A DNA stretch of 64,000 bases from Paracyclopina nana (lineage: Eukaryota > Arthropoda > Copepoda > Cyclopoida > Cyclopettidae), in the NCBI GenBank assembly GCA_019096065.1, contig JAGUCH010000003.1:8184001-8248000 (forward strand), given 5' to 3'. Position numbers and translations under genes: made by a program. The notes under the pieces are model-generated. The model saw only the letters and a list, made by a program, of their open reading frames with translations, was not told the DNA's origin and ran no database searches. Below are positions 1,068 through 46,164 of this stretch, in pieces (positions within the stretch are counted from its first letter, which is position 1; the number at the start of each line of letters is the position of its first letter).

Positions 1068-2914
1068 ACTGAAGTCAAAGTACTACTACTCAGTCTTCTG
1101 TGATGATGATACTCCCTACTTAAAAATAATTCCACCTGAAAAAACAACAACATCATTTCTCGACCATGATGACTTCGAAAATTTAAATGCCAGTGCGATC
1201 GACATCAACAATTTGAATTTGGCGAATTTTTTTGATCAACAACAATCCCAGCAACAACAACAAAAACAGCAGCTACACCAACAGCAGATGCGTCAACAAC
1301 AATAACAACTGTCATGCAGCACAACATAAAAAAAAAACACAGCAGCAAAATTCATGCCCCAACTCTTTTTGAAGAAGAAAAAAGTTCCAATGATGCCCTC
1401 CCAATTTCAAAATTCTCAAATTGAATCTATTTTCAAAATTTCATGCAATGTCACGCTAAATAATACTTCACGTTTGTTTCGTCTCGTTTTGTAGAACAAC
1501 ATGTTAAGCTTTTTTCTAAAAAAAATCATCACTAAATTTCGGCCCTCCCAACAAATGTTGTGCCCAATTAAGCCTAGCCTGGAGCGCGCCATCTGCTGGC
1601 GATGTGGTGCAAAACTGAGCAGAATTTCTTTCACTTCTACTATTGCAAACTTCACAAGGAGATGCAGCTAGGTGTCAAGCCATGAAAATGTCCAGACTAA
1701 CAAGACAGAAAATGACCAGAGCACCCCCTTTTCTGCTGCTGACCTCAACAAGTCAGCTGAAGTGTGCGAGACATTTTCTTGGTTGGCGCCAAAATTCAAA
1801 ACTCAGCATTGGGAAGCAGAAGAGTATATTCTTACAGCAGCTACTGAAAATCCAGATGAAAGCCACCAAAACTGCCATCAAGAGTGGCCAAGAAAACTAT
1901 TGAAAGAAATGATGCTTCAATTTTGACCCTATTGCCATCTGACGGCCTACATGCAAAAAACTGAACTACTGCCAAATTTAACCAAGCCCACCTTTTGAGT
2001 TTAGAAGGTCTTTGTGGAAGAGAGACAAAATATGAAGCTACTTAGATGGACTTTAACTTGATTTGGAGCCATCAACAGTGACTAGAACGACGTCAGTGTT
2101 TGCCAAACATCATCTACTACGATATGTAAATCTACTAAAAAGCAGTGTGTAGACCAAAATCAATGAACCTTGAGCAATTTACAGCAGCAGCAACAAATAA
2201 TAACTTTTTGAGCAGTACCACAACCATCTTTCTACGATAATCATGTAATATACTTGTGTGTAAAACAACTACGACTCTCCAGCCTTCTTTTCGTCACCTT
2301 GTTGCCCTGGCCTTTTTTCCACTCTGAAGAAGAAGAACAGTTTCAAAAGAGCAAAATTAGCCATCATTTTAATGGTGGCTTTGACAGGTGCTCCGCTTCA
2401 ATATTTTACAACGCGCAGGCAGCGAGCAATTTTCAGCTGACCTTGCCAATTTCTCGAGTCAGGATTATTTCCATGATCGATGGCGTTTTTAAAAAGCACG
2501 CATGGAATTCGCTAATGATGAAAAAATCTTGCCGATGATGACCTTCCCATGCAACATTCTGATATTCGAGCAGCCTAATCTAAGGAATTTTTGTCACTCT
2601 CGTGACGTCACTTGCTGCTACTTTCTAAATCATTCCAAGAAAGCCTGAATGATGTCTGACCTCTTGGCCAGCTTTTGTCCCACAACAATTCTTGGCCTCA
2701 GGACAAACAAGACTTTCTTTTCTTCAAAAGCAGCTGTAACGACCTCAAGAGATGTACGAAAGAGTTTTTTTCAAACTTTCTCTTTCGGGATACAAAATAC
2801 AGCTAACATGCTACCCATTCATTTACTGAAGGTGTAAATTTGATTTTCCCCACAGAAGTAATAACCCATTTAAGGCTTCTCAGCAGAATGTTTTTCCTTC
2901 GAGGATCTACTTAC
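1068..2914. other. Non-coding stretch with a CAA/CAG-rich tract
   Basis: This contains the 3' flank of the troponin I-like gene and, on the other strand, the intron after the last visible SLC12A8 exon. A CAA/CAG-rich tract at about 1237-1303 makes a Gln-rich 82-residue open frame (1057-1305) that overlaps the troponin stop. It resembles no known protein and is most likely untranslated sequence. The next SLC12A8 exon expected on the minus strand was not found. Confidence 0.5.
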
Positions 2915-4673
2915 GCTGTGGCTACCGCAGCCAAGGTTCCAATCGAGATATCCTGAGAGGGATTCTTGAGATCTCCACTCATGTTGATGCCAGCCATGAC
3001 TCCTGTCATTGCAGGGAAGAAAACTCCAAAAACACTGAACCAATTATGGTGATCAGTGTAGGCCGGTTTGCTATTATTTTTCCAAACAGTCATATTCCAC
3101 CCATAGAATCCGAACTCTGGAAAAATGTCCGTTTTTGATTTAATACGGCTCAATACGAAATGCCTACCTTCGTTAGTGTGAGTGAAGCTCCCAATGCCAA
3201 AATCCAGAGCTCCAAGAATAAGGATGGACAATAGAACGAATTGAAGCCGGATCACCCATTTCACTCCAGCCAAGTTGATCAAGGTGAGCATAAGAATGAC
3301 AAATCCAGCTACGCTTCGTTCGATCCATGGATTAGGTGTCTCCGAAATTAATCCAGCAATCGATTCTCCGAATCCAGTCGCACAAAGTGCATTTCCAATA
3401 GCCTAAAAATAGAGGAGACTGTCAATTAAAACAACAACGAGAAGGTTACCGCACGTTTCGTACTTCTTTCAGTTCGTTGTTATTGTTTTGGTTGTTTACA
3501 ATCAGAGACTTATATTTTAAGAGAAGTGCTGATGAAATGTAAACATTGCAGGTAGTGGTCACGCACTAAATCGTTCTACTGTCTAGCGCTATCTATAGCG
3601 CAATTAATACCCAAAAATGCCAAAAAGACTTTAACCTTTGTTTTCAATTTCTGGTAACTATGAATCAGCCGTGAATTTTTATTAAGCTTTTTACTAATAT
3701 TGAAATTTTCAATAAGAACTTCAAAAATACTTGTAATAGAAACAATATATTTTGATCTAATTAGAATTGAGAATAAAAGCACCATTTGGGCTCAAATGAA
3801 TACTTTTGGAGATATGACGAATCAAAAGTCTGCCCTAGCCCAGATGTAGTCAGCCAGCGCCGAGGGTTTATTATTGTCTCTTTTGGAGCGTGACCACTAC
3901 GTACATAACGCACCCTATGACGTCATCACTAATGCACTTCTCTTGAAATATAAGTCTCTGTTTACAATGAGATTAGCTAGTAGCAGCGTTAATTAGAATG
4001 CTTAGTCTTTTTGTAGCCAATTTAATTTAGAAAAAGCCAAACCTGTCCAAGAACGTAGAGAATGCCGACTGCAGCTCCTCTTCTGGAGCCAAGTACGTGC
4101 GAAATGAGGAAATAGACGCCTCCGGATTGAACATGGCAACGCTCACAAATCCCTATGGCTGCTAAAACGGCGATCAAGACAAGAGCCACCGCTCCCAGAA
4201 CAATCAAGGCAGCATGGCCAATTCCAGCTTCGGCTACAATCCATCCGGATCGGAGGAATACAATCACCCCAAAGATGTTGATCAAGCATGATGTGAAGAC
4301 GCCATCCCAAGTACCAAAAAGGACCCTCTCAGAGACCAGGAAATGGGACAACCACCAAGGCTGAGCCTTCGATCCCTTGGTAAGGAAAAGTAAGCAATTT
4401 AAAGCATTTTTTCCACCATATTGTTCAATATTGATTTTCAAAACTAACTTGTTCTTAATTCCGATTTCTGAGACTTGCCTCTAAGCAGCAAGATTGTGTA
4501 TTAGATAAAGTTACCTGATCATCTGCAAAGAGCTCATTGTCATTGACAACTTGACCGCTGTATGGATCTTTGCTTCTGGCATGCTCTGTTGATGAAGAGC
4601 CTTGAGTCAGTGGCTGCCTCTCCCCATCCAGGCCAAACTTGCTCCAGTTTGGTTCCTTTGAACCATTCTTCAT
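2915..4673 (-). CDS. SLC12A8-like cation-chloride cotransporter family protein, N-terminal half
   Basis: Three minus-strand exons are clear: 4673-4515, 4375-4043 and 3402-2915, all in phase, giving about 326 residues. The first has a soluble N-terminus (53 aa). The second begins with SKAQPWW and contains [20 protein letters not shown], the N-terminal transmembrane signature that closely matches animal SLC12A8, followed by the [12 protein letters not shown] re-entrant region. The third has [22 protein letters not shown] and [15 protein letters not shown], again SLC12A8-like. SLC12A8 belongs to the amino acid-polyamine-cation superfamily; chloride-cotransporter and nicotinamide mononucleotide transport roles have been proposed for mammals, the latter disputed. 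The last exon ends at a good donor (GC/GTAAGT) after about five membrane segments. No exon for the remaining segments and C-terminus is visible down to base 1. The gene therefore either continues off the window across the opposite-strand troponin I-like gene or is truncated. The middle intron (3403-4042) holds a hAT-like element. Confidence 0.88.
3503..3960. mobile_element. Non-autonomous hAT-like DNA transposon (458 bp) with 8-bp target duplication
   Basis: The element sits inside an intron of the SLC12A8-like gene. It starts CAGAGACTTATATTTTAAG and ends with the inverted complement (CTTGAAATATAAGTCTCTG); the first 28 bases match with two differences. It is flanked by identical 8-bp direct repeats TTTACAAT at 3495-3502 and 3961-3968. 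Subterminal inverted copies of GTAGTGGTCACGC lie near 3553 and 3885. An 8-bp duplication and CAG-type ends are typical of hAT transposons. No transposase frame is present. A relative with the same ends lies at 55523-56741 in the opposite internal orientation. Confidence 0.88.
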
Positions 4674-11100: not shown

Positions 11101-11526
11101 TTGACCTTTTCACTTGATTGGCAATGTAGAAGCGTGATTCCAAGCATTGGGAAAATCTCTAAAAATGGATGATGCTTGAGCTTCCTTGTAATTTTCTGTA
11201 GGGATGACCGAGATTGTCAAAAGTTTTTCGGATGCACTCTTCTGCCTCCGTGAATCCTCTGAAGAAATTGCTTTGTGAAAAAAACTGTGATATTTTGAAC
11301 ATATCTTGCTCGCATAAAGGAGAAAGCCTGATTCTGGCCTGGTGTTGATTATGTGCGGACCCTTATTACACTCATCATTCGTATAATTGCTGTGGTATAA
11401 ATAAGTAAAAGCCAATTATGCCCGACGCTGCATCAATAAAGCAATACAGACCAATTAAGCTAAAAATCAGTTTTGCTTTCTTTTGTACCATCACAATAAA
11501 GCATGATGTATTTTTGCAGGTGGAAA
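8119..11526. other. Intergenic stretch, no supported gene
   Basis: Open frames near 8683-8991, 9363-9608 and 10258-10540 exist, but none has a recognisable domain, good splice context or a family match. At 11511-11519 an acceptor (tttttgcag) immediately precedes the fucosyltransferase start, so a 5' untranslated exon of that gene probably lies in this stretch. Confidence 0.45.
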
Positions 11527-13544
11527 ATGATTTACCGCAACGCCCCTCTGATATTCATCGCCGTATGCGGCCTCATTTTGTTCATTTTTTACACGGCCGA
11601 CGATCAAAGTCCATCCGCTAGCCAACAAGGCTCCAATGTGGCTCCACAGGCTCTGAAAGGCCGCAAGCCATTTTTATTGACCAATAATGATAAGAACAAA
11701 ACCCAACTGAAGACCATTTTGTACTGGAACGAGTTCTACGGCCGCTACGACACGTACGATTTTGGCTTTGGCCACGAGGCCTTCATTGAGAAGAATTGCG
11801 CCTACTCCAACTGTTTTGCTACCAAGGATCGCAATTTGCTCCCCTCACTCGACCAATTTGACGCCATTATAATCCACATACGAGGCCTGCCCAATGATTG
11901 GCCCACCCTGAGGTCAAAAGACCAGAGATACATCATGCTGTCGATAGATGCGCCCATCAAGTTGTACGAATACCGCCATCTTGAAAAGCTGGCCTTCAAT
12001 TGGACCATGACATATCGCATGGATTCCGACTTTCCCATTCCGTATGCTTGGGTGGATCGAATACTTCCGCTGCCGGCCCCTCAAGGCTCAACATTGCTCC
12101 AGAGGTTCATAGCAAGCCATGGGAAAAAGGCCGTGAGCCAAGGCCCGAATTTGGCGGAAAACAAGGTTCGTATTTCTCACTTATAGTGCAGTATGACTCC
12201 TCGGATTACAGACAAAAACAGCCAGGTTTTTCGTCCTCAAGAAAATAACTTTCTCATTTTCCATCACAAATAGAAAACGAAGAGATTGTTTTCGTGTCAG
12301 ATAGAGAGGGGAAAAAGAAAGCTGTGGAATTTCTGCATTATTATTCTCAATATCATTTTGGGAAACCACGTGCTTTCACATTTATGATGGAACATAACAA
12401 GAAATGTTCAAGCTAGGAAAAAATTGGTCATGGGTCGTAACCAGATAGGGCAGAATTGAATTTTGTGGAACGAGGCCGTTTCCGGCCTTTTTCTTCCCCC
12501 TTTGTTGATGATGGACTTTATGGCCTTCTCGTGTGTGGAAGCTTTTATTGGAGCTGCTTAGAGTTGATACTTTTTTTCTTCAGGTCGGCATCGCTGTCCA
12601 ATTTGTGTCCAATTGCCATTCCTCTTCTAAACGCGAGGCCTATGTGCGAGAGCTCAGACGCTTCATTCCTGTCGACATCTATGGAAAATGTGGTGAATTT
12701 AAATGTCCCAAGGAGCGAGGTTGGCAGTGCTACAAAGAGGCTGAGGCCAAATACAAATTCTACTTGGCATTTGAAAATGCTGTGTAAGCAGCCAAACCAG
12801 AGTTATAATGCACTTTCTTGGCCTAAATTATGCTTTCGCAATTTTCAGCTGTCAGGATTACGTGACGGAGCAGTTCTTCAACATGTACAACCTCAACATG
12901 ATTCCGGTGGTCTTTGGAGGGGCCAACTACACAGCAATCGCTCCGCAGCACTCCTACATAGATGCGGCAGATTTCCCCAAGTAAGGAAAAATTGCCATTT
13001 TTAGCTTTATAATCTACCACATTCGCTATTAACAATAACATTGTACATTTTGAAGATGTTTTCACTATTTTTCCTGGTCAGCTGGCCTTAATACTTTATC
13101 TTCAACGACAAAGATGCACTTGCACGTTTTTTGGAAGATACATTATGAAGCTTGAGTGAGCATGAAGGACGAAGAATATTTTGCTTTTCCTCTCATATAT
13201 ATACACTATATACGTAGAAGAAGAAGATTCTCTCTGAAAAGCCATGTTAAAAAGATAATTTCATGTCGTTTAGCTACAATTGGCACGTTTCTCCTCCTTT
13301 CAGCCCCAAAGCTTTGGCCCATTACCTCAAGCTCTTGGATGCGGACGATGCCAAATTCAATGAGTACTTTTGGTGGCGAGATTTCTACACGCGCAAGTTT
13401 CGCCATCACCAAGCGCTATGTGATGTTTGCGAAAAACTGCATACAGACAAGGAGCCCAAAAGCTACCCAAATATGCAAGAATGGTGGGTCAATCAGGCCA
13501 AGTGTAGGTCCAATCACATCATTAGCCAGGATGACATGATCTAA
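11527..13544 (+). CDS. Alpha-1,3-fucosyltransferase (glycosyltransferase family 10)
   Basis: Exons 11527-12165, 12584-12783, 12849-12980 and 13304-13544 join in frame to 403 residues. The enzyme would move fucose from GDP-fucose onto N-acetylglucosamine of glycans in the Golgi. A short cytosolic N-terminus and a membrane anchor (about residues 7-23, APLIFIAVCGLILFIFY) give the expected type II topology. The catalytic block runs from NCHSSSKREAYVREL and IPVDIYGKCG to ENAVCQDYVTEQFFN (residues 277-291), then IPVVFGGANY, IAPQHSYIDAADF. The usual motif has TEK; here it is TEQ. The C-terminus has paired Trp (FWW) and a CDVC pair typical of invertebrate members. Start choice: an acceptor ending at 11519 makes Met11527 the first ATG of the exon. 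Whether it makes core or Lewis-type linkages cannot be told. A polyadenylation signal follows 105 bp downstream. Confidence 0.93.
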
Positions 13545-16240: not shown

Positions 16241-30545
<14,305 letters not shown>

Positions 30546-32421: not shown

Positions 32422-35400
32422 ATGTCTGCCTCGACTGACGATAAAAGTGTAGTTGATTCTTCAGAAGCGACCAGTGCAGAAGAAGAGGATAAACTGATTC
32501 GGTTGGAATTTGGCAATTTGAAAGGCATCGACTCTAACTCACCCTTGAGAAAAATGAAGTGCAAAAAGAAAGTGAGCAAGTCACAAAAAGGCACAAATGA
32601 AGATATCATAGCACAACTTCACATTGCTCTCTGGCCCAAAAATGACCTCGACCTTTTTGTAAAACTGCTAGAAGAGAATCCTTTTGCGAGAAGTAGCAAA
32701 TTCGGTATGTGCAAAGATACCCTTTTGCACAGGTATGCAGCATAATCAGTTGAAATTACATAAAACTGGTGATTATCAGTTACATCATTTTTCCAGAGCT
32801 TCGCGTTATGGCAAAACTGAAGCTGTGCGAATCCTGCTTGATTACGGGGCAGAAGTGGACGAGCCCAATGTGAATGGCCAAACTCCGTTGCATTTGGCCT
32901 GCTTGGGAAAGGCTCCAAAAGTGGTGGAATTGTTGCTTGAAGCAGGAGCTGATTATTTATCAAGAAATATCGAAGGAGACTGCTCTACTCACTTGGCAGT
33001 CAAAGTAAGAATCCATTATAACTAATTAAATGTTAACTTGAGATGCCTAAAAAAATAGGGAGGATCTTTGGAATGCCTGCAGTTGATCTTGGACAAGTTC
33101 AAGAACTGCAATGCCCTGAAATGCAAGGGTGCATTTGGCAACAGTGGTCTTCACTACTCTGCTCAATGTGGACGAGTGGCAATGACCAAGTTTTTCATAG
33201 AAAAAGGTTTTGACGTCAACGATACCAACGAGCTGACGGAAACGCCATTACACTTAGCTGCAGGCGGATACTTTAACGGTAAAGTGCTTAGAATACGGCA
33301 TGAAATTTCTTTTTATCTGCATAAAACACTCCCTAGAAAATGGCACTGAAATCGTCCAGCTACTGCTGAATGCTGGGGCTGTTTTAAATGCAACCACAGC
33401 CTGGGGAGATACTGCAGCTCACTACGCAGCAGCCTCTGGAACCTACGACAATTTGGTGTATTTGGTGGAGGCTGGCTGCTCTGTGGCCAAGAGCAAGGCA
33501 CTCGCCATTGAAGGTTGGAAATTGTGCCAAAAATTCAATCTCTCCAAGGACTTTGAGGACTGCACCAAATACAACATTCTGCAAAAAGTAGCCAGGTCCT
33601 CATGCATCAACAAGTCGACCTACTTGCTTGACAAAATGATGAAAGCTCGCATCAAAATTGGCTCCAACTCGTGCAAGCCGTACATCGGGAAAATAGGTCG
33701 GGAACTGGCCTTTTATCAGCAAGAGCTGAACCAGCAGGAAACCGAGTTTTTCCTGCTCTCCAAGGAATTCCACAAGGAGATGAACAACCCTGACTCAGCC
33801 CTGAAATTGTTTCTTAATTACACCCCAGATGCTTTGGAGCATCTCTTCGACCTGTGCATCTCCTCCTTTTGCGATTCTGAGCAGGTGCAGGGCAAAGTCT
33901 TCTTTGACTTTTTCCTCTTCTGCTCTCCAGACGAAACGAAGGGTTTGCTCAAAGAAGGAACTGGTGAGCTGGCACTGCCCCAGATTCTCATCTCTAATGG
34001 CAAAAGTCACTATCTCCTGCACCCCGTTTTTGAAACATTCATGAAAGTAAGCTACAGCGCTTTTATTTTGCGAAGGCTATACTAAATAAGGCTCTCTCTC
34101 TTGCTTTCCAGCTCAAATGGCTGAGAACGTACAAAGTATTCCTCGTCTTTTTGTTCGCCTACATTCTATACGTGCTGTCAGTGGTTGGCTTTTCACTGGC
34201 TCATTTTGGTCAATACGAGGGCTTCCACGGCTCAGGCTATGATGTGTGGTGGATATTTCTGTGCGTCATGTCCACGTGGTGGTCGTTTGCCCTGGTCAAA
34301 GTGATGGTCGAAATAATTCTCTTTGTCAAGGCTCAAAAGGAAGACGTCTCCAGGGACAAAACGTGGAAGTTTATGACCAAGTCCAACATCTTTTTCGCCA
34401 TCGCGGGCATCTTCAAGAAGATTTTGCTCGCAGTTTTCCCCTTCGTGCTCCTATATACGAGTACGAGCCACGATGCGAAACGATACATCGCAGCACTTAA
34501 CGTGGTCCTCGCCTGCTTTGAGCTCATGCTCACCTTCAGCAAATTGCCAGATGTGGGCATTTACATTTTCATGCTGCAGAAAGTCACGCTGAGCATCCTC
34601 CGATTCTTTGCCACGTATGTTTGGCACTTTTTGGGATACGCCATCGCCTTTCACATCATCATGCCCAAAAATGGCGCCTTTCACAGCATCCAAGACTCTC
34701 TAATTAAGGTGGGAAAAAGTTGGATATTTTTCAGGGGAAATATGACTTTTCTATCTTTTTTGTATGTAGGTTCTGACCATGCTCATGGGTGAATACGACT
34801 TCACCGACAATTTTGTCAACGACGACATTTTTTGGCTGAATAAGGTTCTTTTTGTGGTGTTTGTTATCGACATGTCGATCGTGCTGATGAACCTGGTCAT
34901 TGGCTTGGCTGTCAGTGATGTTGAGGCCATTCGAAGAGACTCGAATGTGCAACGATTGATGCACGAGACTTTTACAGTTATTTACCTCGAGAAGGTAAGC
35001 AATCCTCAAAGCCATATTTTAATATGCATAATTTTTGGATTTAATGTTAGGTGTACCAATCATTGAATAGTCTGCCCCTGATTGGAAAGTACTTCGATGG
35101 CGTCAGGTTGATCAACCAGAAAACGTGCAATTTCAAACACGTGGTCTACTTGGACTTGGTTGACGTTGCTGACAACACTGAAAACTCAATCATTATGGAC
35201 GATGGTCCATGCGGGATCAATGAGAAACACCCATGCCCCAAAACGATCATGAAAAGTGTCGTTGCTGTTCTCAAGAAACGTATTCAGGGCAACACCATCA
35301 AAAGAGATCCAATCTCTGAGGAAATCATCAATGAGCTCAAGTCACAAAATGAGGCGTTGCAAAAACACTTGGGAGACATGGACGACCAAATGAAGCATTT

Positions 35401-38837: not shown

Positions 38838-40327
38838 TCAAATTATGTTACAGTCTGGCACATTGTAGGGCCAGTCACATGTGAGGGAATTAGGGTTAAA
38901 AACTAGTCCAGGTTGACAGCATTCATGTCCATGGATGATTCCTCCATCACATAAATAAAAGCACTGGCAGTTTTCAGGATCTTGCACATCATCTTGGTTG
39001 GGATTATTCAAGTCTTCACAAACATTTGGGCCAGGCCAGGGCATATCAGTATCTATATCAAAAGATTTAAGCCTAACTTCTCATTTAGTATATATTTGTG
39101 AGCCATACTTGGGCAGCTTTCCATCAATTGGACAAAGTCCCAATCATTGGAGGTGATAACTGGGCCAATTTCATTAGGGCATAAAACATTATCCTCACCA
39201 ACTAGGCCCAAGTATTGCTTCATGCCAAACATCCTTGCATCTTTGTAGAGCCATGCTATATCACAATTTTGACAAGTTGATACTCTTGCCTGCCCATTTG
39301 TGGAATTGAAAAGATCTTGAAAAAAAAATATTTTTTGAATTGAAGAAGAACATTTCTGAAAATGCTTACCAAAGTGGCCTTTGTCAAAATGCGTTTTGAG
39401 CATGATTCTGAAGACATCCTCAGGAAAATCTGAAGTTGCAATGTAGAGTCCATTCCACAGCTCACCTCCTTCCACATTTCCGAATGCATTCGGAAGTAAC
39501 ATCAAGTTTTCTATGGGACTATCTGGGTCCTTGGAAGAAATGTGCAAATCCTTGGGCAATTTGGACTTGGTGTAGAATCCATTGGTTTGAACGACCAAAT
39601 TGTCACCAGAACCAATTAGGTACAGCGCTTTCAGTCCTGTGGCAGATAAAAAAGCATATGGCTCAATAACTTCCAATTTCTCATTATAGCTCAAGTCGAT
39701 GGAGTGCAACTTTTCAGGCCAAATGATATCAGTAGGTATCTTCCATAGGCCACTTCCAGTAATAGAGAACTCATGGAGTCCTCTAAATTGTTGCATATAC
39801 AAAAATGAAAAGTCCCTGTAAATGATTTAAATGGAGCATTAGCCTTAAAATCATAGCACCACGTTCGAATTCTAGGTAAGCAAATATTTATAATATGAAG
39901 TAGTCATCCTTGTGCGTAAGAATTATCATGAATAGTTTGCTTACGTCAAAATGGGATTATTCTCAACTTTGAAAACACGAATTTTGTCAGGTGACCCACC
40001 AAGAAATCCAAACTCGATGGATTTGAGGTAATCATTTTCTGCCAACGTGAACTCATTTGAGGATATCCCCCTGAAGCAATCTGGAGTCAGCCTTGTGAAA
40101 TTATTGGAAACGAAAATGGCTTCGTCATAGTGGCCGGCATAACCAGTAAGTGGCAAGTCTGCATCAGTCAAATCCTCACAAATGAGCTGCTGTCTTCCCC
40201 CCTAATTAACTGAGACTAGTCAATGAAAAAAATTAAAATAACTAATAAAACTCACGTGGACCTCGCATTTTGAGGCGAAAGAAAAAGCAAATAAATTAGC
40301 AATGCTAATCGACAAGAATATGAACAT
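38838..40327 (-). CDS. Secreted leucine-rich-repeat protein with C-terminal chitin-binding (CBM14) domain
   Basis: Five exons, 40327-40256, 40201-39945, 39815-39370, 39315-39109 and 39052-38838, join in frame to 398 residues. A signal peptide (MFIFLSISIANLFAFSFAS) is followed by diverged leucine-rich repeats (NNFTRLTPDCFRGISSNEF; LHSIDLSYNEKLEVIEPYAF; GLKALYLIGSGDNLVV). A Cys-containing linker (STCQNCDIAWLYKD) is typical of this group. From about residue 334 there is a type 2 chitin-binding domain with six spaced cysteines (VCEDLNNP ... ENCQCFYLCDGG ... ECCQPGLVFN ... LTCDWPYNVPDC). The LRR-then-CBM14 layout and the phrases LPNAFGN and IATSDFPEDVF fit the large crustacean family annotated as oplophorus-luciferin 2-monooxygenase non-catalytic subunit-like. 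That name comes from shrimp luciferase; bioluminescence is not implied. It probably acts outside the cell, on cuticle, peritrophic matrix or in immunity (inference). Introns are 54-56 bp except one of 129 bp. Confidence 0.88.
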
Positions 40328-40876
40328 GTTGAAGGTTGGACGTTAAAAGGATCATGGAATCAAAATCAAAGCTTTATTTACGCAACTGCCATTATCTCGT
40401 GATTTCGCACAATTCAATTCATCTATGATAAGAAGTGTTTGATCAACGACTCAACTGCGGGCGCCAAAGTGTAATTATGTCACATGAAAGTGAATTGATG
40501 CAATAAAAATGCCCTTGCAATCTTCATTTTTCTCTAGATGATTCCAGAAATATTTTGGTTGAACCTGGGACTTTCCCAAGTTGCAGTGACCGCGCTCCAA
40601 TTCTGTTGCTAAGCCAAAATTCGTCAATTACGATCTTTGGTTGGTGGTCATCTACCAGACTGAATTTTCTGAAGAAAATGGTCACAATAAATCCAAATGA
40701 CATTTCACAAAAGCCGCATTCGCACACAATTGACAGATGACCAGAGCTCGCGTTGACCAGTTTTACCCAGTTGGAACGTTGACGTTTTGACCGGCGCGTT
40801 GACCAGCAGCTATCTCAGCTGTTGACCTGGCTCTCAAGTTGAGGCATTTGAGTCAGTTTTATTTGGGGCTCTAACA

Positions 40877-43532
40877 ATGAGGGTCGCAGGCGTAATTTTA
40901 GGGGCTCTTTTCGCCTCCACTTTGGTATCCGCAATAAATATCAGGTGAGTAAATACATAAAATACAGATAATTTGGAGGCCTTTTCTTTGAGATCTTTGC
41001 TTCCTTGCCCACACCATCATTTGCTATAAATACTCTTAATCAATCGTGGCACTATTTTTAACTGTGGGCCTGCAAATTGTGGATTATCCGCACCTGAAAT
41101 TAATTGGATTTTGAATAATAGGCCCAGAAGCAATACTGCTGAGACTCTTGCTCGCACTCGCAGGTCTCCCCAATTCTATCAATCGTTCGCACCAGGAGTT
41201 TTAAATACGAATTGTGACTCTGGAAATTGCTCGACTTTCATCACTCCGGGACCAGTAGACAATGACAAGGTTATTGTGGCTCCTCCGCAAGAACCAGCTC
41301 AAACCTCTGAAAATGGAGGCTGCCTATGCAACCCTCAGAGGTCTCCCAAGCAGTTCTACCAATTTTTTGCGTCCAAGCCAATAACTGTACCCTTTGATAA
41401 CCAATCAAACACATCAGGCACTTTGGTATGCACTCATGAAGGAGAAGTGCAGAAATGCCAGTGCATCTGCAGCCCTGTTACCATTTATCGTCCAAGGCCC
41501 ATTTCCCCACCATGGCCTTTCACGACTTGGCCTTTTTACTGGCCATTTTATGGACTTTACCCAAGCAGCCCCCAAAAGATCTCAACGTAGGCTACATGCA
41601 AATCATCTCCATAAGGGATTTTTAATAACTAGCTACTTTTTTTTTATAGCCACAAGGTCAAGCGATTTTCGCAATTTAACCAGAATTACCTGCCAGGATC
41701 TCAGAGCCAGAATTTCAACTGCCAATTCGGCGGTTGTGGCAATATTCCTGGCATGCAGCAATTTCATGGTGCCAACGTCTTCAACAGTGGATCTTCTTTT
41801 GGTCAGAACTACTTTGGTGGCAGCTCAGCCATGAACTTTGGCAGAAGGAAAAGGCGATCATACATTGAAAAGGAGTATGTTTAACAATTTTTACACTTTT
41901 CAATTTTTTAACCATTATTTCATTTTTAGGGCTCCCAAAGATACATCTGTTAAATCAACAAGCAAGACTATGGACGTAATTGTGACTATGGAGAAGTTTG
42001 ACGAGCCAACGAAAACTGCCAAGAGATCTGCTCAGTTCATGCAAACCTACCAGCCAGGATCTCAGAGCCAGAATTTCAACTGCCAATTCGGGGGTTGCGG
42101 CAATATTCCGGGCATGCAACAATTTCATGGCGGCAATGTTCACAATGTTGGATCTACTTTTGGTCAGAACTACTTTGGTGGTAGCTCCGCTACTAATTTC
42201 GCTGGAAGGAAGAAACGATCAGCCCAGTTCAACCAGAATTACCTGCCAGGGTCACAGAGCCAGAATTTCAACTGCCAATTCGGTGGTTGTGGAAATATTC
42301 CTGGCATGCAGCAGTATCATGGTGCTAATGTTTACAACAGTGGACCAGCATTTGGCCAAAACTACTTTGGTGGCAGCACAGCCACAAACTTTGGAAGACG
42401 TAAGAGGTCTGAACCTGAGAAGGAAACTACTACTACCACCGTTATTAAGCCCTATGGAGATTTGGATGCCTTTTTGAGAACCACCGAGTTGACTGAGATT
42501 GATGGCTTTAAAGAGTGCATTTGCTCTGTAGGCAGGATCACCAACCACGGTACCACAGTTTGCGTTGAGAAGGAAGATGCAGCTCCTGTCTGCCGATGCA
42601 CTTGCTCTCCTTTTTCGATCATCCAGACCCCACCAGTTCCTACCATGCCTGTTGTTCCATTCATGATGCCTACTCCATATGGAATGCGTAAGAGGTCCAT
42701 TGATCCGGAAGTCAACGAAAAAATGCCTATGGAACCTACAGATGTGGAGCTTTCACGAGCCATCATGGATTTTGAGGAGGACCAAGAAGATGAATCTGAT
42801 ATGTCTCCTGATGTTGCCCCTGATGCCAGGAGTGATGAGGTTGTTGCTGATGAGGCTGTTAAAGCTACCATCATCAAGGAAGAAGAGAGATTTTTTGTGG
42901 ACTCTGAAAACGAGGATTGTTTCTGCCCAACAAAAGCTGGCTTTCCAAAGATGCCTGGCACAGTTATGTGCAACATGGAGCTGAAGAAGACTTGCAAGTG
43001 CACCTGCGAAACATTCACAATCTTAGGTGCTTATGCACCTATCATACTTAGAAATGCACCTGAACTGATGCTTGGCCCAAATCCTCAACCAATCCCACTG
43101 ATGTTGAATAGGCCTATCATTGACCCTTACTTGAGGATGAGGCGTTCAGCACAATTTTACCAAAGCTTCAATCCAGGATCCTCAAACATCAATTGTGGAA
43201 TAACTGGATGCGTTGGCCAGATGACTCCGGGAGGAGTGCCTAATATGGGCATTCCTAACCAGACTATGCACATGGGACCACAAATGGGCATGCCTATGGG
43301 GTACCCATACTTTATGCAGCATCCGGCAGCTTATGCGCCCCAGATGACAATGAACCCATATCATCCTCAACAATTTCATCCCCAGCCCCAGCCTCAACCT
43401 CAAGCACCTAGGCCTTCTGCTCCGGCTAATAATCCAACTTCCGGAGCTTCTGGAACCATTGATCAATCTATGCCCAATACTGCCAACCCTACTGAGGTCA
43501 GAAGACCGATCGCAACTGCACCTCACCAATAA
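40877..43532 (+). CDS. Secreted repetitive precursor with two alternating cysteine modules
   Basis: Exons 40877-40944, 41122-41586, 41650-41874 and 41930-43532 join in frame to 786 residues. Exon 1 is a signal peptide (MRVAGVILGALFASTLVSA). I do not recognise the family. Module A occurs five times: a basic pair or Arg, then a (S/P)xQFxQxxxPG stretch and a two-Cys core (NCDSGNC, NCQFGGC three times, NCGITGC), at about 41158, 41667, 42025, 42216 and 43140. The three middle copies extend to about 60 residues ending NYFGGSxAxNF and a basic cluster (RRKRR, RKKR, RRKR). Module B occurs three times: CxC, about 12-25 residues, GTxxC or similar, then CxCxC with xFxI or similar (GGCLCNP ... CQCICSPVTI; ECICSVG ... 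CRCTCSPFSI; DCFCPTK ... CKCTCETFTI). An acidic spacer and a Met/Pro/Gln-rich tail complete it. Basic sites between modules suggest proprotein cleavage, but a structural or adhesive role is equally possible. Confidence 0.85.
41665..42405 (+). repeat. Three near-identical coding repeat units of about 190 bp
   Basis: Units at about 41667-41855, 42025-42213 and 42216-42405 share long identical runs such as CAGAGCCAGAATTTCAACTG and differ mostly at third positions. The first is separated from the others by an intron and spacer; the last two are directly adjacent. This points to recent internal duplication or ongoing gene conversion within the precursor gene. Confidence 0.8.
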
Positions 43533-43605: not shown

Positions 43606-43611
43606 AATAAA
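43606..43611 (+). terminator. Polyadenylation signal AATAAA of the repetitive precursor gene
   Basis: AATAAA lies 74 bp after the stop and only 10 bp before the stop codon of the convergent minus-strand gene, so the two transcripts probably abut or overlap. Confidence 0.6.
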
Positions 43612-43620
43612 AAAATTGGT

Positions 43621-44954
43621 TCATTCATAATCTGTTGCCTCGTCATCAGACGGAGTGACTAGCGTGAATTTCTCCGTAGCATTGAGGTCGCTGACTAATC
43701 TGGCAAAATGCTTCTTTTTTGCTCGTTCGATTTTCTTTCTTCTGCAATACCAACATCCGATTACAGCCACAATCGTCAATGCAAATGAGCATATCAAAGC
43801 TGCCACCATAACTGCCTCGTCGTCTTTATATTTTACCTGTATAAAAAAAGAAAGAATTTTTTTCGTATCAAGCTAGTAGGAATTATTTCTAACCCAAACC
43901 GTTTTTGGCCAAGAATTTTCCAAGTTGTCAAAAATGTCCTTGGGATTGTCTTCTTCTTCCGTGTCAGTGATGTCAATATCTGGCACTGCGGTGGAATTAA
44001 CCAACTCTTGCACCTCGATTTCATCTTGTGAAATCGTGGAACTAGTGGTTGTGGAAGTACTCAGCAATTTTCTAGTTATAAGGTTGCTCTCCTCTGCACT
44101 TTTTTCCAAGTCTTCCAATGATGGTATCGGATCCGGATAGTAATCGGTCTCCTCTTCTTCATTTGAATATGAGTCACTTTGCACGTCGTAATCCGGATCG
44201 ATCATCCCACGATTTTTACGAGCATAGAAAAACTCTTCATTTAATTGGCTCGAGCTCTCGGATTCTGATTGCCTAAAATCCGGATCACGAGGGTCATTGT
44301 CAAAGTTGCTTTCATCAAGGAAAAATGAAGGTTTGAAATCCGGATCATCGCTATATTGTGACTTTCTTTCTTCATTGCTTATAGCCAATTCTGGATCAAT
44401 GGCTCTGCTATTGTAAGACTTTTTTTCCTCAGCTAACTCTGAATCATTCTTGGGTGTAGTATACAAATAATCATTGGTACTGGAACTTTCGTCAATTTTC
44501 AAGGTTGAAGACATCAGCTCTAAAAAAAATTCTTACATTTAGACCAAATAATCTAATGATAGACTATATTACCATAATCAGGGAAAATTGTGGTGTATGA
44601 TGTCTCATTGAAATCATCAAAATCGTTGGTGGCATTTGAAGTTGCATTGAAAAGATTTTCATCGTCGACTTGGAGACCAAACCAGCTTCTGCCTCTTGTT
44701 AAGGCATCCTGGATGGAACCAGGAAAGATGACTGTCCCAAAAAGCACCACCGACACAAGAGCTCCAATTGCAAGCAAGACAGTGAATATGGAGCAACATT
44801 TGCTCAATTTTCGCTGTTTCGAGCCTGTTGATCTCGATGATGGGCCCAGTACTTTGTCCAAGTCGTCTTCATCCTCTGATGAGGAATCTGGTCTCACCAA
44901 ATCCACCCTTTGGTAACGAAATTCATCTTTGACTCTTCTGGACTTGCTCGTCAT
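43621..44954 (-). CDS. Unrecognised acidic protein with two membrane segments, 407 aa
   Basis: Exons 44954-44573, 44519-43894 and 43836-43621 join in frame. The start is the ATG of MTSKSRRVKDEF; the frame stays open a few codons upstream but without another ATG. A basic/acidic cytosol-like N-terminus (SSSEDEDDLDKVLG) leads to a first membrane segment (about residues 54-77, CCSIFTVLLAIGALVSVVLF). A long Asp/Glu/Ser-rich region follows, with N-glycosylation-like NAT/NET sites and a loose repeat DPDFK, DPDFR, DPDYD, DPEL. A second membrane segment lies near the C-terminus (VMVAALICSFALTIVAVIGC), then CRRKKIERAKKK and a short tail. By charge, both ends could be cytosolic with the acidic region outside. 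No family recognised. The second donor is weak (GG/GTTAGA), so that junction is the least certain; the acceptor and phase fit. Confidence 0.78.
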
Positions 44955-46164
44955 GGTATTCACTGTATATGATATGACCAGCTGAATGTAACAGGTGTTT
45001 TTTCTTTCACTGCATGTATATTGTATCTGGAGGGTCTAGTTTTTGCTGGAAGCTTTCCTCTGTTACGGGGCAACTTTTCTTTGGATCTGATTATCTGATT
45101 TTGACTGAGTGGCAATCACTGAGGAAGGGATCCTCTTTGGCCTTTTATGAAAAGGGCCAGCTAGCAGCGAGGCCAAGAAGAAGTGTTGATGAGGAGGAAT
45201 GAGTAAGGAAAGCTTCACACCACAATACAATAAGCTGGCTGGTGCTGCGAGCACTAATCAATACTTAACCTCATCATATGGTTCACACTGGCCAAAAAGG
45301 GCTCAGCTAGCTTTATGAAATGAAAAGAGACAAAATTGCAAGACGAGCCACTTCAGGGCTCTAGGTGAATTTCTATGGAGGGATTTTGTGGGATCTGGGC
45401 CGCCATGTGACAAAACATCTGTTTTTCCGGGCTTGCCCTCTTCGCTGCACTATATATGATTGCTATACACACTTGGACGTGATGAATCAGTTATCAAAAG
45501 ACAGAAAAGGTAAACTGCGGGTACATCAGAATATTATTGCCAGTTTCCGGATTCTTGCATTTTATCTGCTATGCATTTTAAATGGATGTAAATTGAATTC
45601 TGTTTTATGGACGAAGTGAAATTTTGAAAAAGTTCTGCGTTCTCCAAGTAATATGATTCCTTCGAAATATGCAAGTACGTGACTTTTATTGTGATCGTGA
45701 CTCAAAAGTACCACGAGAGCTTGTATAGCTCCAACATCAATTAGACATCAGCTGCAACATTTCCTAACTTCTAATTTCAATTTTCCAAATTACTCTATTT
45801 TTATGTGCATTAGCAAGATGAACGCAGAGGGAGCAAACGAAAGTTTCTTTTTAAGAATTATTTGTAGAATTCAGCCTGGGCCAATGGGAATCAGCTCTTG
45901 CATATTTCCTGAAAGTTTGTCATCTTGCAGAAAAGGCACGAAACAAAGCAAAACTTTTGAGTACATATGAGCTCAAAATTATAATAAGATATTTATTTGT
46001 GTAGCACGCCTTATTTTTCGGACTATATATGAGTAGTAGAAGATATACCAATCGTATAAGTGTGGTAGTAGTATATGTTTTCGTGATTATCACCAATTAT
46101 TCTACATAGAGTAGCAATAGCACACAATATTATTCCAAATTAGTAAAAATCTTCAAAGCACCCA
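44955..46164. other. Intergenic stretch
   Basis: No coding or RNA feature is supported. The right part is the 3' flank of the SLC35F-like gene. Confidence 0.5.
45993..45998 (-). terminator. Candidate polyadenylation signal of the SLC35F-like gene
   Basis: AATAAA on the minus strand, about 170 bp past the stop codon. Confidence 0.45.

What the first reader, a model, noticed from the sequence alone, without database searches (positions are those of the whole stretch)
40877..43532. A repetitive secreted precursor made of two alternating cysteine modules with basic cleavage-like sites
The gene has a signal peptide, five A modules (QFxQ..PG..NC-x3/4-C), three B modules (CxC ... C ... CxCxC-xFxI) and basic clusters (KR, RKKR, RRKRR) exactly at module borders, plus an acidic spacer and a Met/Pro/Gln-rich tail. 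The architecture fits either a polyprotein releasing several near-identical disulfide-loop peptides or a cross-linked structural or adhesive secretion. I know of no described family with this pair of modules. Basis for cleavage is only the basic motifs.
Basis: partly seen in the sequence, partly recalled or inferred. Interest (0 to 1): 0.85.

Follow-up and report, generated by a model that had tools for sequence, protein, structure and literature searches.

The report
Cleavable secreted two-module repeat protein
This gene of an arthropod-like animal encodes a secreted chain built from two repeated cysteine modules and punctuated by what look like enzyme-cutting sites, so it may be one precursor that is cut into several small disulfide-looped building blocks, probably for an extracellular material; no relative turned up in the libraries searched.

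Summary
A four-exon gene (40877-43532, +, 786 residues) encodes a hydrophobic leader, five A modules and three B modules; all 28 cysteines lie in modules. The A loop is C-x4-C in 5 of 5 copies, not x3/4. Eight of ten basic clusters lie at module or segment borders. Five of 5 A modules start two residues after one (random placement reached at most 3, once in 100,000). Ser is at P1' in 7 of 8 border sites; 5 of 8 fit strict R-x-[KR]-R. Three long A cassettes share an identical 23-residue core although silent sites diverged heavily (dN/dS 0.04-0.11). No credible relative appeared in Pfam, NCBIfam (two segments), PDB, viral contigs or prokaryote genomes. No animal collection was available, so orthologues were not sought. 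Best reading: a convertase-cut polyprotein releasing uncharged, predicted-disordered A peptides and small beta-sheet B knots, most likely parts of an apical extracellular matrix. An immune-effector or peptide-hormone polyprotein is possible, less likely. Cutting, tissue and function are inferred, not shown.

The parts
40877..40944 (+). exon 1: start codon and hydrophobic leader (aa 1-22)
   Evidence: most hydrophobic 9-aa stretches of the chain start at aa 3-6, KD 2.4-2.6
41122..41586 (+). exon 2 (465 nt, phase 2-2): propeptide with RTRR, A1, B1 and Pro/Trp/Phe-rich stretch
41153..41164 (+). border site RTRR|S
41165..41230 (+). A1 module (aa 38-59)
41321..41470 (+). B1 module (aa 90-139) with long first loop
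41339..41368 (+). A-like start RSPKQFYQFF in the first loop of B1 (no ring, no basic pair before it)
41650..41874 (+). exon 3 (225 nt, phase 2-2): one A cassette with both flanking basic sites
41654..41665 (+). border site KVKR|F
41666..41842 (+). A2 cassette (aa 184-242), no D/E/K/R
41843..41857 (+). border site G-RRKRR|S
41930..43532 (+). exon 4: A3, A4, B2, acidic spacer, B3, A5, Met/Pro/Gln tail, stop
42021..42026 (+). border site TA-KR|S
42027..42206 (+). A3 cassette (aa 286-345), no D/E/K/R
42207..42218 (+). border site G-RKKR|S
42219..42395 (+). A4 cassette (aa 350-408), no D/E/K/R
42396..42407 (+). border site G-RRKR|S
42516..42605 (+). B2 module (aa 449-478)
42687..42695 (+). border site M-RKR|S
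42696..42917 (+). acidic spacer (aa 509-582)
   Evidence: composition of aa 509-658 and 509-654
42918..43007 (+). B3 module (aa 583-612)
43134..43145 (+). border site RMRR|S
43146..43211 (+). A5 module (aa 659-680)
43212..43529 (+). Met/Pro/Gln-rich tail (aa 681-786)
43606..43611 (+). AATAAA, candidate polyadenylation signal
40752..40826 (+). upstream cluster of four GTTGAC (4 of the 27 GTTGAC/GTCAAC in the window); role unknown

Best explanation
A secreted precursor enters the secretory pathway through its leader. Its cysteines pair inside modules (2 per A, 6 per B), and a furin-type proprotein convertase cuts at up to eight border sites. The cuts would release three near-identical 59-60-residue uncharged Q/N/G/S/aromatic A peptides with one small disulfide ring, an A1-B1 unit, a B2 unit, an acidic-spacer-B3 unit, and an A5-Met/Pro/Gln tail. 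The acidic spacer may balance the basic clusters until cutting. The products most likely co-assemble into an apical extracellular material (cuticle, eggshell, gut lining or glandular secretion), with A as disordered, self-associating linkers and B as small beta-sheet knots, supplied in fixed ratio by one chain. Shown here: module anatomy, placement and context of the sites, and protein-level constraint on the three long A copies. Predicted only, from very shallow alignments: A disordered, B beta-sheet. Inferred: secretion, cutting, disulfides and the matrix role.
For: Five of 5 A modules start exactly 2 aa after a basic cluster (5 of 6 if the ringless QFYQ in B1 is counted); random placement of ten clusters gave at most 3, once in 100,000. 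R-x-[KR]-R occurs 6 times, two of them overlapping in RRKRR, against a shuffle mean of 0.12 and maximum 2 in 5000; 5 of 8 border sites end in it. Ser is at P1' in 7 of 8 border sites, including 3 of 3 that do not precede an A module; the two non-border clusters have Thr and Pro. All 28 cysteines fall in modules and each cysteine-bearing predicted product has an even number. The three long A cassettes keep an identical 23-aa core, NG86 dN/dS 0.109, 0.085 and 0.040 at dS 1.0, 0.78 and 2.5. The four longest uncharged runs of the chain (88, 60, 59 and 59 residues) each begin right after a border site. A is predicted disordered (pLDDT 48) and B2 as three beta strands (pLDDT 69). The head-to-head neighbour encodes leucine-rich repeats and a chitin-binding CBM_14 domain in one frame after a 56-nt intron is taken out, a weak hint of an apical-matrix setting.
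Against: No peptide, expression or protease data. No animal relatives could be searched, so conservation of the sites across species is untested. Three of 8 border sites (KVKR, TAKR, MRKR) lack Arg at P4. The shuffle, placement and binomial tests treat paralogous copies as independent, so their P values are too small, and the patterns were fitted to the copies. dS is near saturation, the YN00 estimate failed, and gene conversion could also keep copies alike. Uncharged runs of 59 or more turned up in 15 of 5000 shuffles. Gly stands directly before the basic cluster in 3 of 3 long A cassettes, which would also suit C-terminal amidation of a signalling peptide. The matrix role rests on composition and one neighbour.
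Confidence: 0.5

Rival explanations
1. An uncut, disulfide- and otherwise cross-linked structural or adhesive secretion in which the basic clusters are charged patches, not cutting sites.
For: Repetitive Q/N/G/S/P/M composition and 28 cysteines suit a cross-linked material. The acidic spacer could pair with the basic clusters. Three of 8 border sites lack the strict furin pattern.
Against: Clusters sit at borders with Ser at P1' in 7 of 8 and strict R-x-[KR]-R in 5 of 8. Patches for charge pairing would not need that context.
Confidence: 0.17
2. An immune-effector polyprotein of the Baramicin kind: tandem related peptides released by furin and acting against microbes.
For: Same layout as Drosophila BaraA: tandem related peptides with furin sites between them and different end peptides (PMC8423362, passages, one of them from the abstract).
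Against: The three long A peptides carry no charged residue, which I would not expect of a membrane-active peptide (general knowledge). No Pfam family above cut-off. No direct comparison with Baramicin was made.
Confidence: 0.14
3. A peptide-hormone or neuropeptide prohormone with multiple copies of a disulfide-ring peptide, amidated at the Gly before the basic cluster.
For: Multi-copy layout; Gly directly before the basic cluster in 3 of 3 long A cassettes; small ring C-x4-C in 5 of 5.
Against: Products of 59-60 aa made of Q/N/G/S/aromatics with no charge, fused A1-B1 and A5-tail products, and no Pfam family for the whole chain up to E 5. The Gly count comes from three paralogous, Gly-rich copies; 0 of the other 5 border sites have it.
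Confidence: 0.12
4. B modules are inhibitors or metal binders of the pacifastin or metallothionein kind and A modules only linkers.
For: Pacifastins come as multi-domain precursors with frequent dibasic sites between domains (PMC13388995, passages). B has six cysteines and a predicted small beta sheet.
Against: The cysteine order C-x-C..C..C-x-C-x-C does not fit the two pacifastin-type patterns tried, which were recalled (none found). No Pfam match above cut-off and no fold match at E <= 0.001.
Confidence: 0.07

Closest known systems
Drosophila Baramicin A (PMC8423362, passages seen, one from the abstract)
   Same: One chain with tandem related peptides separated by furin sites and distinct end peptides.
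   Different: No Pfam family found here; A peptides have a predicted disulfide ring and no charge; two cysteine modules; no evidence of an immune role. Sequences were not compared directly.
Pacifastin multi-domain precursors (PMC13388995, passages seen)
   Same: Repeated small six-cysteine domains with dibasic sites between them.
   Different: Cysteine order differs from the recalled patterns tried and there is no Pfam match; a second, uncharged two-cysteine module is interleaved.
Convertase-cut apical-matrix proteins: C. elegans cuticle collagens and ZP proteins (PMC11304992, passages seen)
   Same: Secreted matrix proteins with furin-type sites used in maturation or assembly.
   Different: No collagen or ZP family found by Pfam in the whole chain; here there are eight candidate sites that would cut the chain into many pieces.
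Cysteine-rich insect chorion proteins (PMC13409908, passages seen) and Drosophila Dec-1 (its cutting into several eggshell products is recalled, not from a call)
   Same: Secreted eggshell proteins; moth chorion of Hyalophora is hardened by disulfides.
   Different: No Pfam match here; no direct sequence comparison made; module pair and site pattern not reported in the passages seen.
CBM_14 (peritrophin-A) proteins, as in the neighbouring gene
   Same: Six-cysteine secreted modules (recalled), adjacent locus.
   Different: A recalled CBM_14-like cysteine spacing was not found and Pfam finds CBM_14 only in the neighbour.

Membership tests
Convertase-cut secreted polyprotein (works-like class) | Signal peptide | tested here: met
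   hydrophobic leader, aa 1-19, by hydrophobicity only; no signal-peptide predictor available
Convertase-cut secreted polyprotein (works-like class) | Convertase-type sites placed between repeats | tested here: met
   8 of 10 basic clusters at borders; before 5 of 5 A modules; 5 of 8 strict R-x-[KR]-R
Convertase-cut secreted polyprotein (works-like class) | Released peptides | not testable with these tools
   needs peptidomics
Baramicin | IM24 or IM10-like sequence | not tested
   no Pfam family above cut-off, but no direct comparison with Baramicin was made
Baramicin | Immune induction, antifungal role | not testable with these tools
   no expression or infection data
Neuropeptide prohormone | Multiple peptide copies flanked by basic sites | tested here: met
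Neuropeptide prohormone | Match to a known prohormone family | tested here: not met
   Pfam: 0 families up to E 5 on the whole protein; many neuropeptides are too short for Pfam, so this is weak
Neuropeptide prohormone | Gly amidation donor before basic site | tested here: inconclusive
   3 of 3 long A cassettes, 0 of the other 5 border sites
Pacifastin | Cysteine signature C-x(9,12)-CNxCxC...C...C (recalled) | tested here: not met
   strict and loosened patterns, 0 matches
Chitin-binding cuticle or peritrophin families | Chitin_bind_4 or CBM_14 domain | tested here: not met
   0 Pfam families for the whole protein and none of these for one A and three B segments
Oxytocin/vasopressin type (ring of the same size, recalled) | Neurophysin domain | tested here: not met
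   no Pfam match; all 28 cysteines are in A and B modules
Metallothionein | Family match, no secretion leader | tested here: not met
   leader-like start present, no Pfam match above cut-off

The most novel reading that the evidence does not exclude
A 'protein operon' for a material: one chain that convertases cut into disordered uncharged disulfide-ring linkers (A) and small beta-sheet knots (B) in fixed ratio, a module pair unknown to the family libraries searched, with a symmetric exon that carries a whole A cassette plus its two cutting sites so that copy number can change without breaking the frame.
Probability: 0.28. Interest if true: 0.65.

Novelty: new variant of a known kind. Interest (0 to 1): 0.45.

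Why it matters
If right, it is an animal matrix (or effector) made from a single chain cut into two kinds of small building block, with a repeat-bearing exon that could explain how the copy number evolves. Eight defined sites and exact product masses make it directly testable by peptidomics.

Tried and rejected
Relatives: viral contigs with the A alignment, the B alignment and one A cassette; genome contigs with A and B. Pattern matches were found (41, 19, 6, 58 and 37 stretches), none of which encoded a relative by tblastn. PDB by sequence: 0 for the whole chain, 0 for B, one chance-level match for A (tailspike, E 0.86). Fold search with the B2 model: 83 PDB and 274 BFVD rows at E <= 10, none at E <= 0.001. 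The best PDB row is 1xi7, a cysteine-rich domain of a polydnavirus product (E 1.9, TM 0.30); the best BFVD row has E 0.58. All were taken as chance level. The A model (pLDDT 48) was not searched. Weak Pfam matches of B segments (DUF3797 E 0.51, SWIM E 0.11, Fibulin-2 E 0.12, all below cut-off) were rejected. NCBIfam was scanned with one A and the B2 segment only: none.

A tblastn hit of B's end motif at 22092-22118 (E 5.6) was rejected as chance: no + strand frame of 110 aa or more covers it. An alternative acceptor that would make the intron-1 FNCGPANCG coding was rejected: no AG lies between the in-frame stop before 41030 and the motif.

Literature: ten searches, each with a capped list. One search used a malformed term and its result was not used. 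One search found 0 papers. One search looked for five short A-module strings anywhere in the text and found 0. The rest gave listings from which I looked into five papers by passage search (PMC8423362, PMC13409908, PMC11304992, PMC13388995, PMC4275877; the last gave nothing used). I saw no paper describing this module pair among those listed.

Full report
What is there. The window holds a four-exon gene on the + strand: 40877-40944, 41122-41586, 41650-41874 and 41930-43532, with GT..AG introns of 177, 63 and 55 nt, all phase 2, and an AATAAA at 43606 (coordinates rechecked). It encodes 786 residues. The start is a hydrophobic leader (no dedicated predictor was available). The source organism is not known; no whole genome is held for it.

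Modules. A modules lie at aa 38-59, 184-242, 286-345, 350-408 and 659-680 (the three in the middle are given as whole cassettes), and B modules at aa 90-139, 449-478 and 583-612. Their patterns, fitted to these copies, occur in 0 of 5000 shuffles (the module patterns had wrong spacings and missed 1 of 3 B and 5 of 5 A). Every A loop is C-x4-C. Residues between the six B cysteines are 1-33-8-1-1, 1-12-9-1-1 and 1-14-7-1-1. The 28 cysteines are exactly five A pairs and three B sextets. Order: A1-B1-A2-spacer-A3-A4-B2-acidic spacer-B3-A5-tail. QFxQ occurs a sixth time in the long first loop of B1 (RSPKQFYQFF, close to the A1 start RRSPQFYQSF); it has no ring and no basic pair before it, and I left it out of the A count.

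Cutting sites. Of ten basic clusters, eight lie at borders: RTRR|S, KVKR|F, RKRR|S, TAKR|S, RKKR|S, RRKR|S, MRKR|S and RMRR|S. Two do not: KK inside B3 (before Thr) and RR in the tail (before Pro). Five of 5 A modules (5 of 6 QFxQ) start exactly two residues after a cluster; in 100,000 random placements of ten clusters the best was three, once. Adjacent basic pairs number 18 against a shuffle mean of 5.6 and maximum of 14; R-x-[KR]-R occurs 6 times, two overlapping, against a mean of 0.12 and maximum of 2. Five of 8 border sites end in strict R-x-[KR]-R; KVKR, TAKR and MRKR do not. Ser is at P1' in 7 of 8 (binomial P 9e-8, too small because some sites are paralogous; the three sites that do not precede an A module are also Ser). 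That furin favours such contexts is recalled knowledge.

Constraint. The three long A cassettes are 78-85% identical in DNA. NG86 dN/dS is 0.109, 0.085 and 0.040 with dS 1.0, 0.78 and 2.5 (near saturation; the YN00 estimate failed). A 23-residue core around the ring has no amino-acid change in any of the three pairs (positions). The copies are therefore old and each is held by selection on the protein, unless gene conversion contributes.

Character of the products. If cut and trimmed, A2, A3 and A4 have 59, 60 and 59 residues (C-terminal Gly kept) with 0 charged residues, masses 6.25-6.31 kDa and 2 cysteines each. The other cysteine-bearing products are A1-B1 (142 aa, 8 Cys), B2 (93 aa, 6 Cys, pI 4.6), acidic-B3 (146 aa, 6 Cys, pI 4.2) and A5-tail (128 aa, 2 Cys). 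The four longest uncharged runs (88, 60, 59, 59) each begin right after a border site; on the other side, 15 of 5000 shuffles also contain a run of 59 or more. A is predicted disordered (pLDDT 48, pTM 0.12, five-row alignment). B2 is predicted as three beta strands (pLDDT 69, pTM 0.38, three-row alignment), with no fold match at E <= 0.001 among PDB chains or viral models. Both predictions rest on very shallow alignments.

Relatives. None in Pfam above cut-off (whole chain up to E 5; one A and three B segments), NCBIfam (two segments) or PDB sequences (one chance-level row at E 0.86). None confirmed in viral contigs or in the prokaryote genome collection. These collections are not animal collections, so absence there says little about animals. 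Full-text search for five short A strings found 0 papers.

Surroundings. On the minus strand a leader-like frame starts at 40327, leaving 549 bp between the two start codons. Further on lie leucine-rich repeats (LRR_8, E 1.4e-6) and a CBM_14 chitin-binding domain (E 1.2e-9). Taking out a 56-nt intron at 39053-39108 joins the LRR part and the CBM_14 part in frame, so they are probably one gene; the splice from the leader to the LRR exons was not modelled. Between the two genes lies a cluster of four GTTGAC within 75 bp; the window has 27 on both strands, and outside this cluster no 120-bp stretch starting at one holds more than two. No meaning is claimed for it.

Mechanism. The anatomy is that of a chain to be cut: sites at borders, mostly in convertase context, even cysteine numbers per product, and a symmetric exon 3 that carries an A cassette with both its sites. 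Whether the products are a material, an immune effector or a signal is open. Absence of charge, Q/N/G/S/aromatic make-up and predicted disorder favour a self-associating matrix part. The Gly before the basic cluster in 3 of 3 long cassettes fits an amidated peptide and is the best point against that reading. Baramicin shows that furin-cut tandem effectors exist in an insect (PMC8423362, passages). C. elegans cuticle collagens and ZP proteins show that matrix proteins use such sites (PMC11304992, passages). Pacifastins show domain precursors with dibasic sites between domains (PMC13388995, passages).

Verdict. Observation confirmed with small corrections; the polyprotein reading is well supported by sequence but untested; the matrix role is inferred at about even odds. 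New variant of a known kind (cut secreted polyprotein), with a module pair unknown to the libraries searched.

Noticed in passing
window 41057-41083 (+), intron 1: FNCGPANCG, in frame with exon 2, resembles the A ring. NC-x4-C occurs 13 times in the six frames of the window; NC-x4-C-G occurs 4 times: three are A2-A4 and this is the fourth. Possibly a decayed sixth A module, or chance.
   Followed up: partly
window 40752-40826: Four GTTGAC within 75 bp just upstream of the gene, the densest cluster in the window (4 of 27).
   Followed up: partly
window 38838-40327 (-): Head-to-head gene: leader-like frame, leucine-rich repeats and a chitin-binding CBM_14 domain; the LRR and CBM_14 parts join in frame over a 56-nt intron, the rest was not modelled.
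   Followed up: partly
window 43621-45000 (-): Convergent, tail-to-tail reading frames that look like a membrane protein with acidic DPDF-like repeats; no Pfam match for two stretches tried.
   Followed up: no
window 33258-34789 (+): Ankyrin repeats followed by hydrophobic stretches without a Pfam match, looking like a TRPA-type channel (name from memory).
   Followed up: no
window 2914-3402 (-), 11500-12183 (+), 17740-18108 (+) and 29187-29633 (+): Amino-acid permease-type transporter, fucosyltransferase N-terminal domain, protein kinase domain and CNH domain; with the ankyrin frame, 5 of 10 frames scanned had a Pfam match.
   Followed up: no
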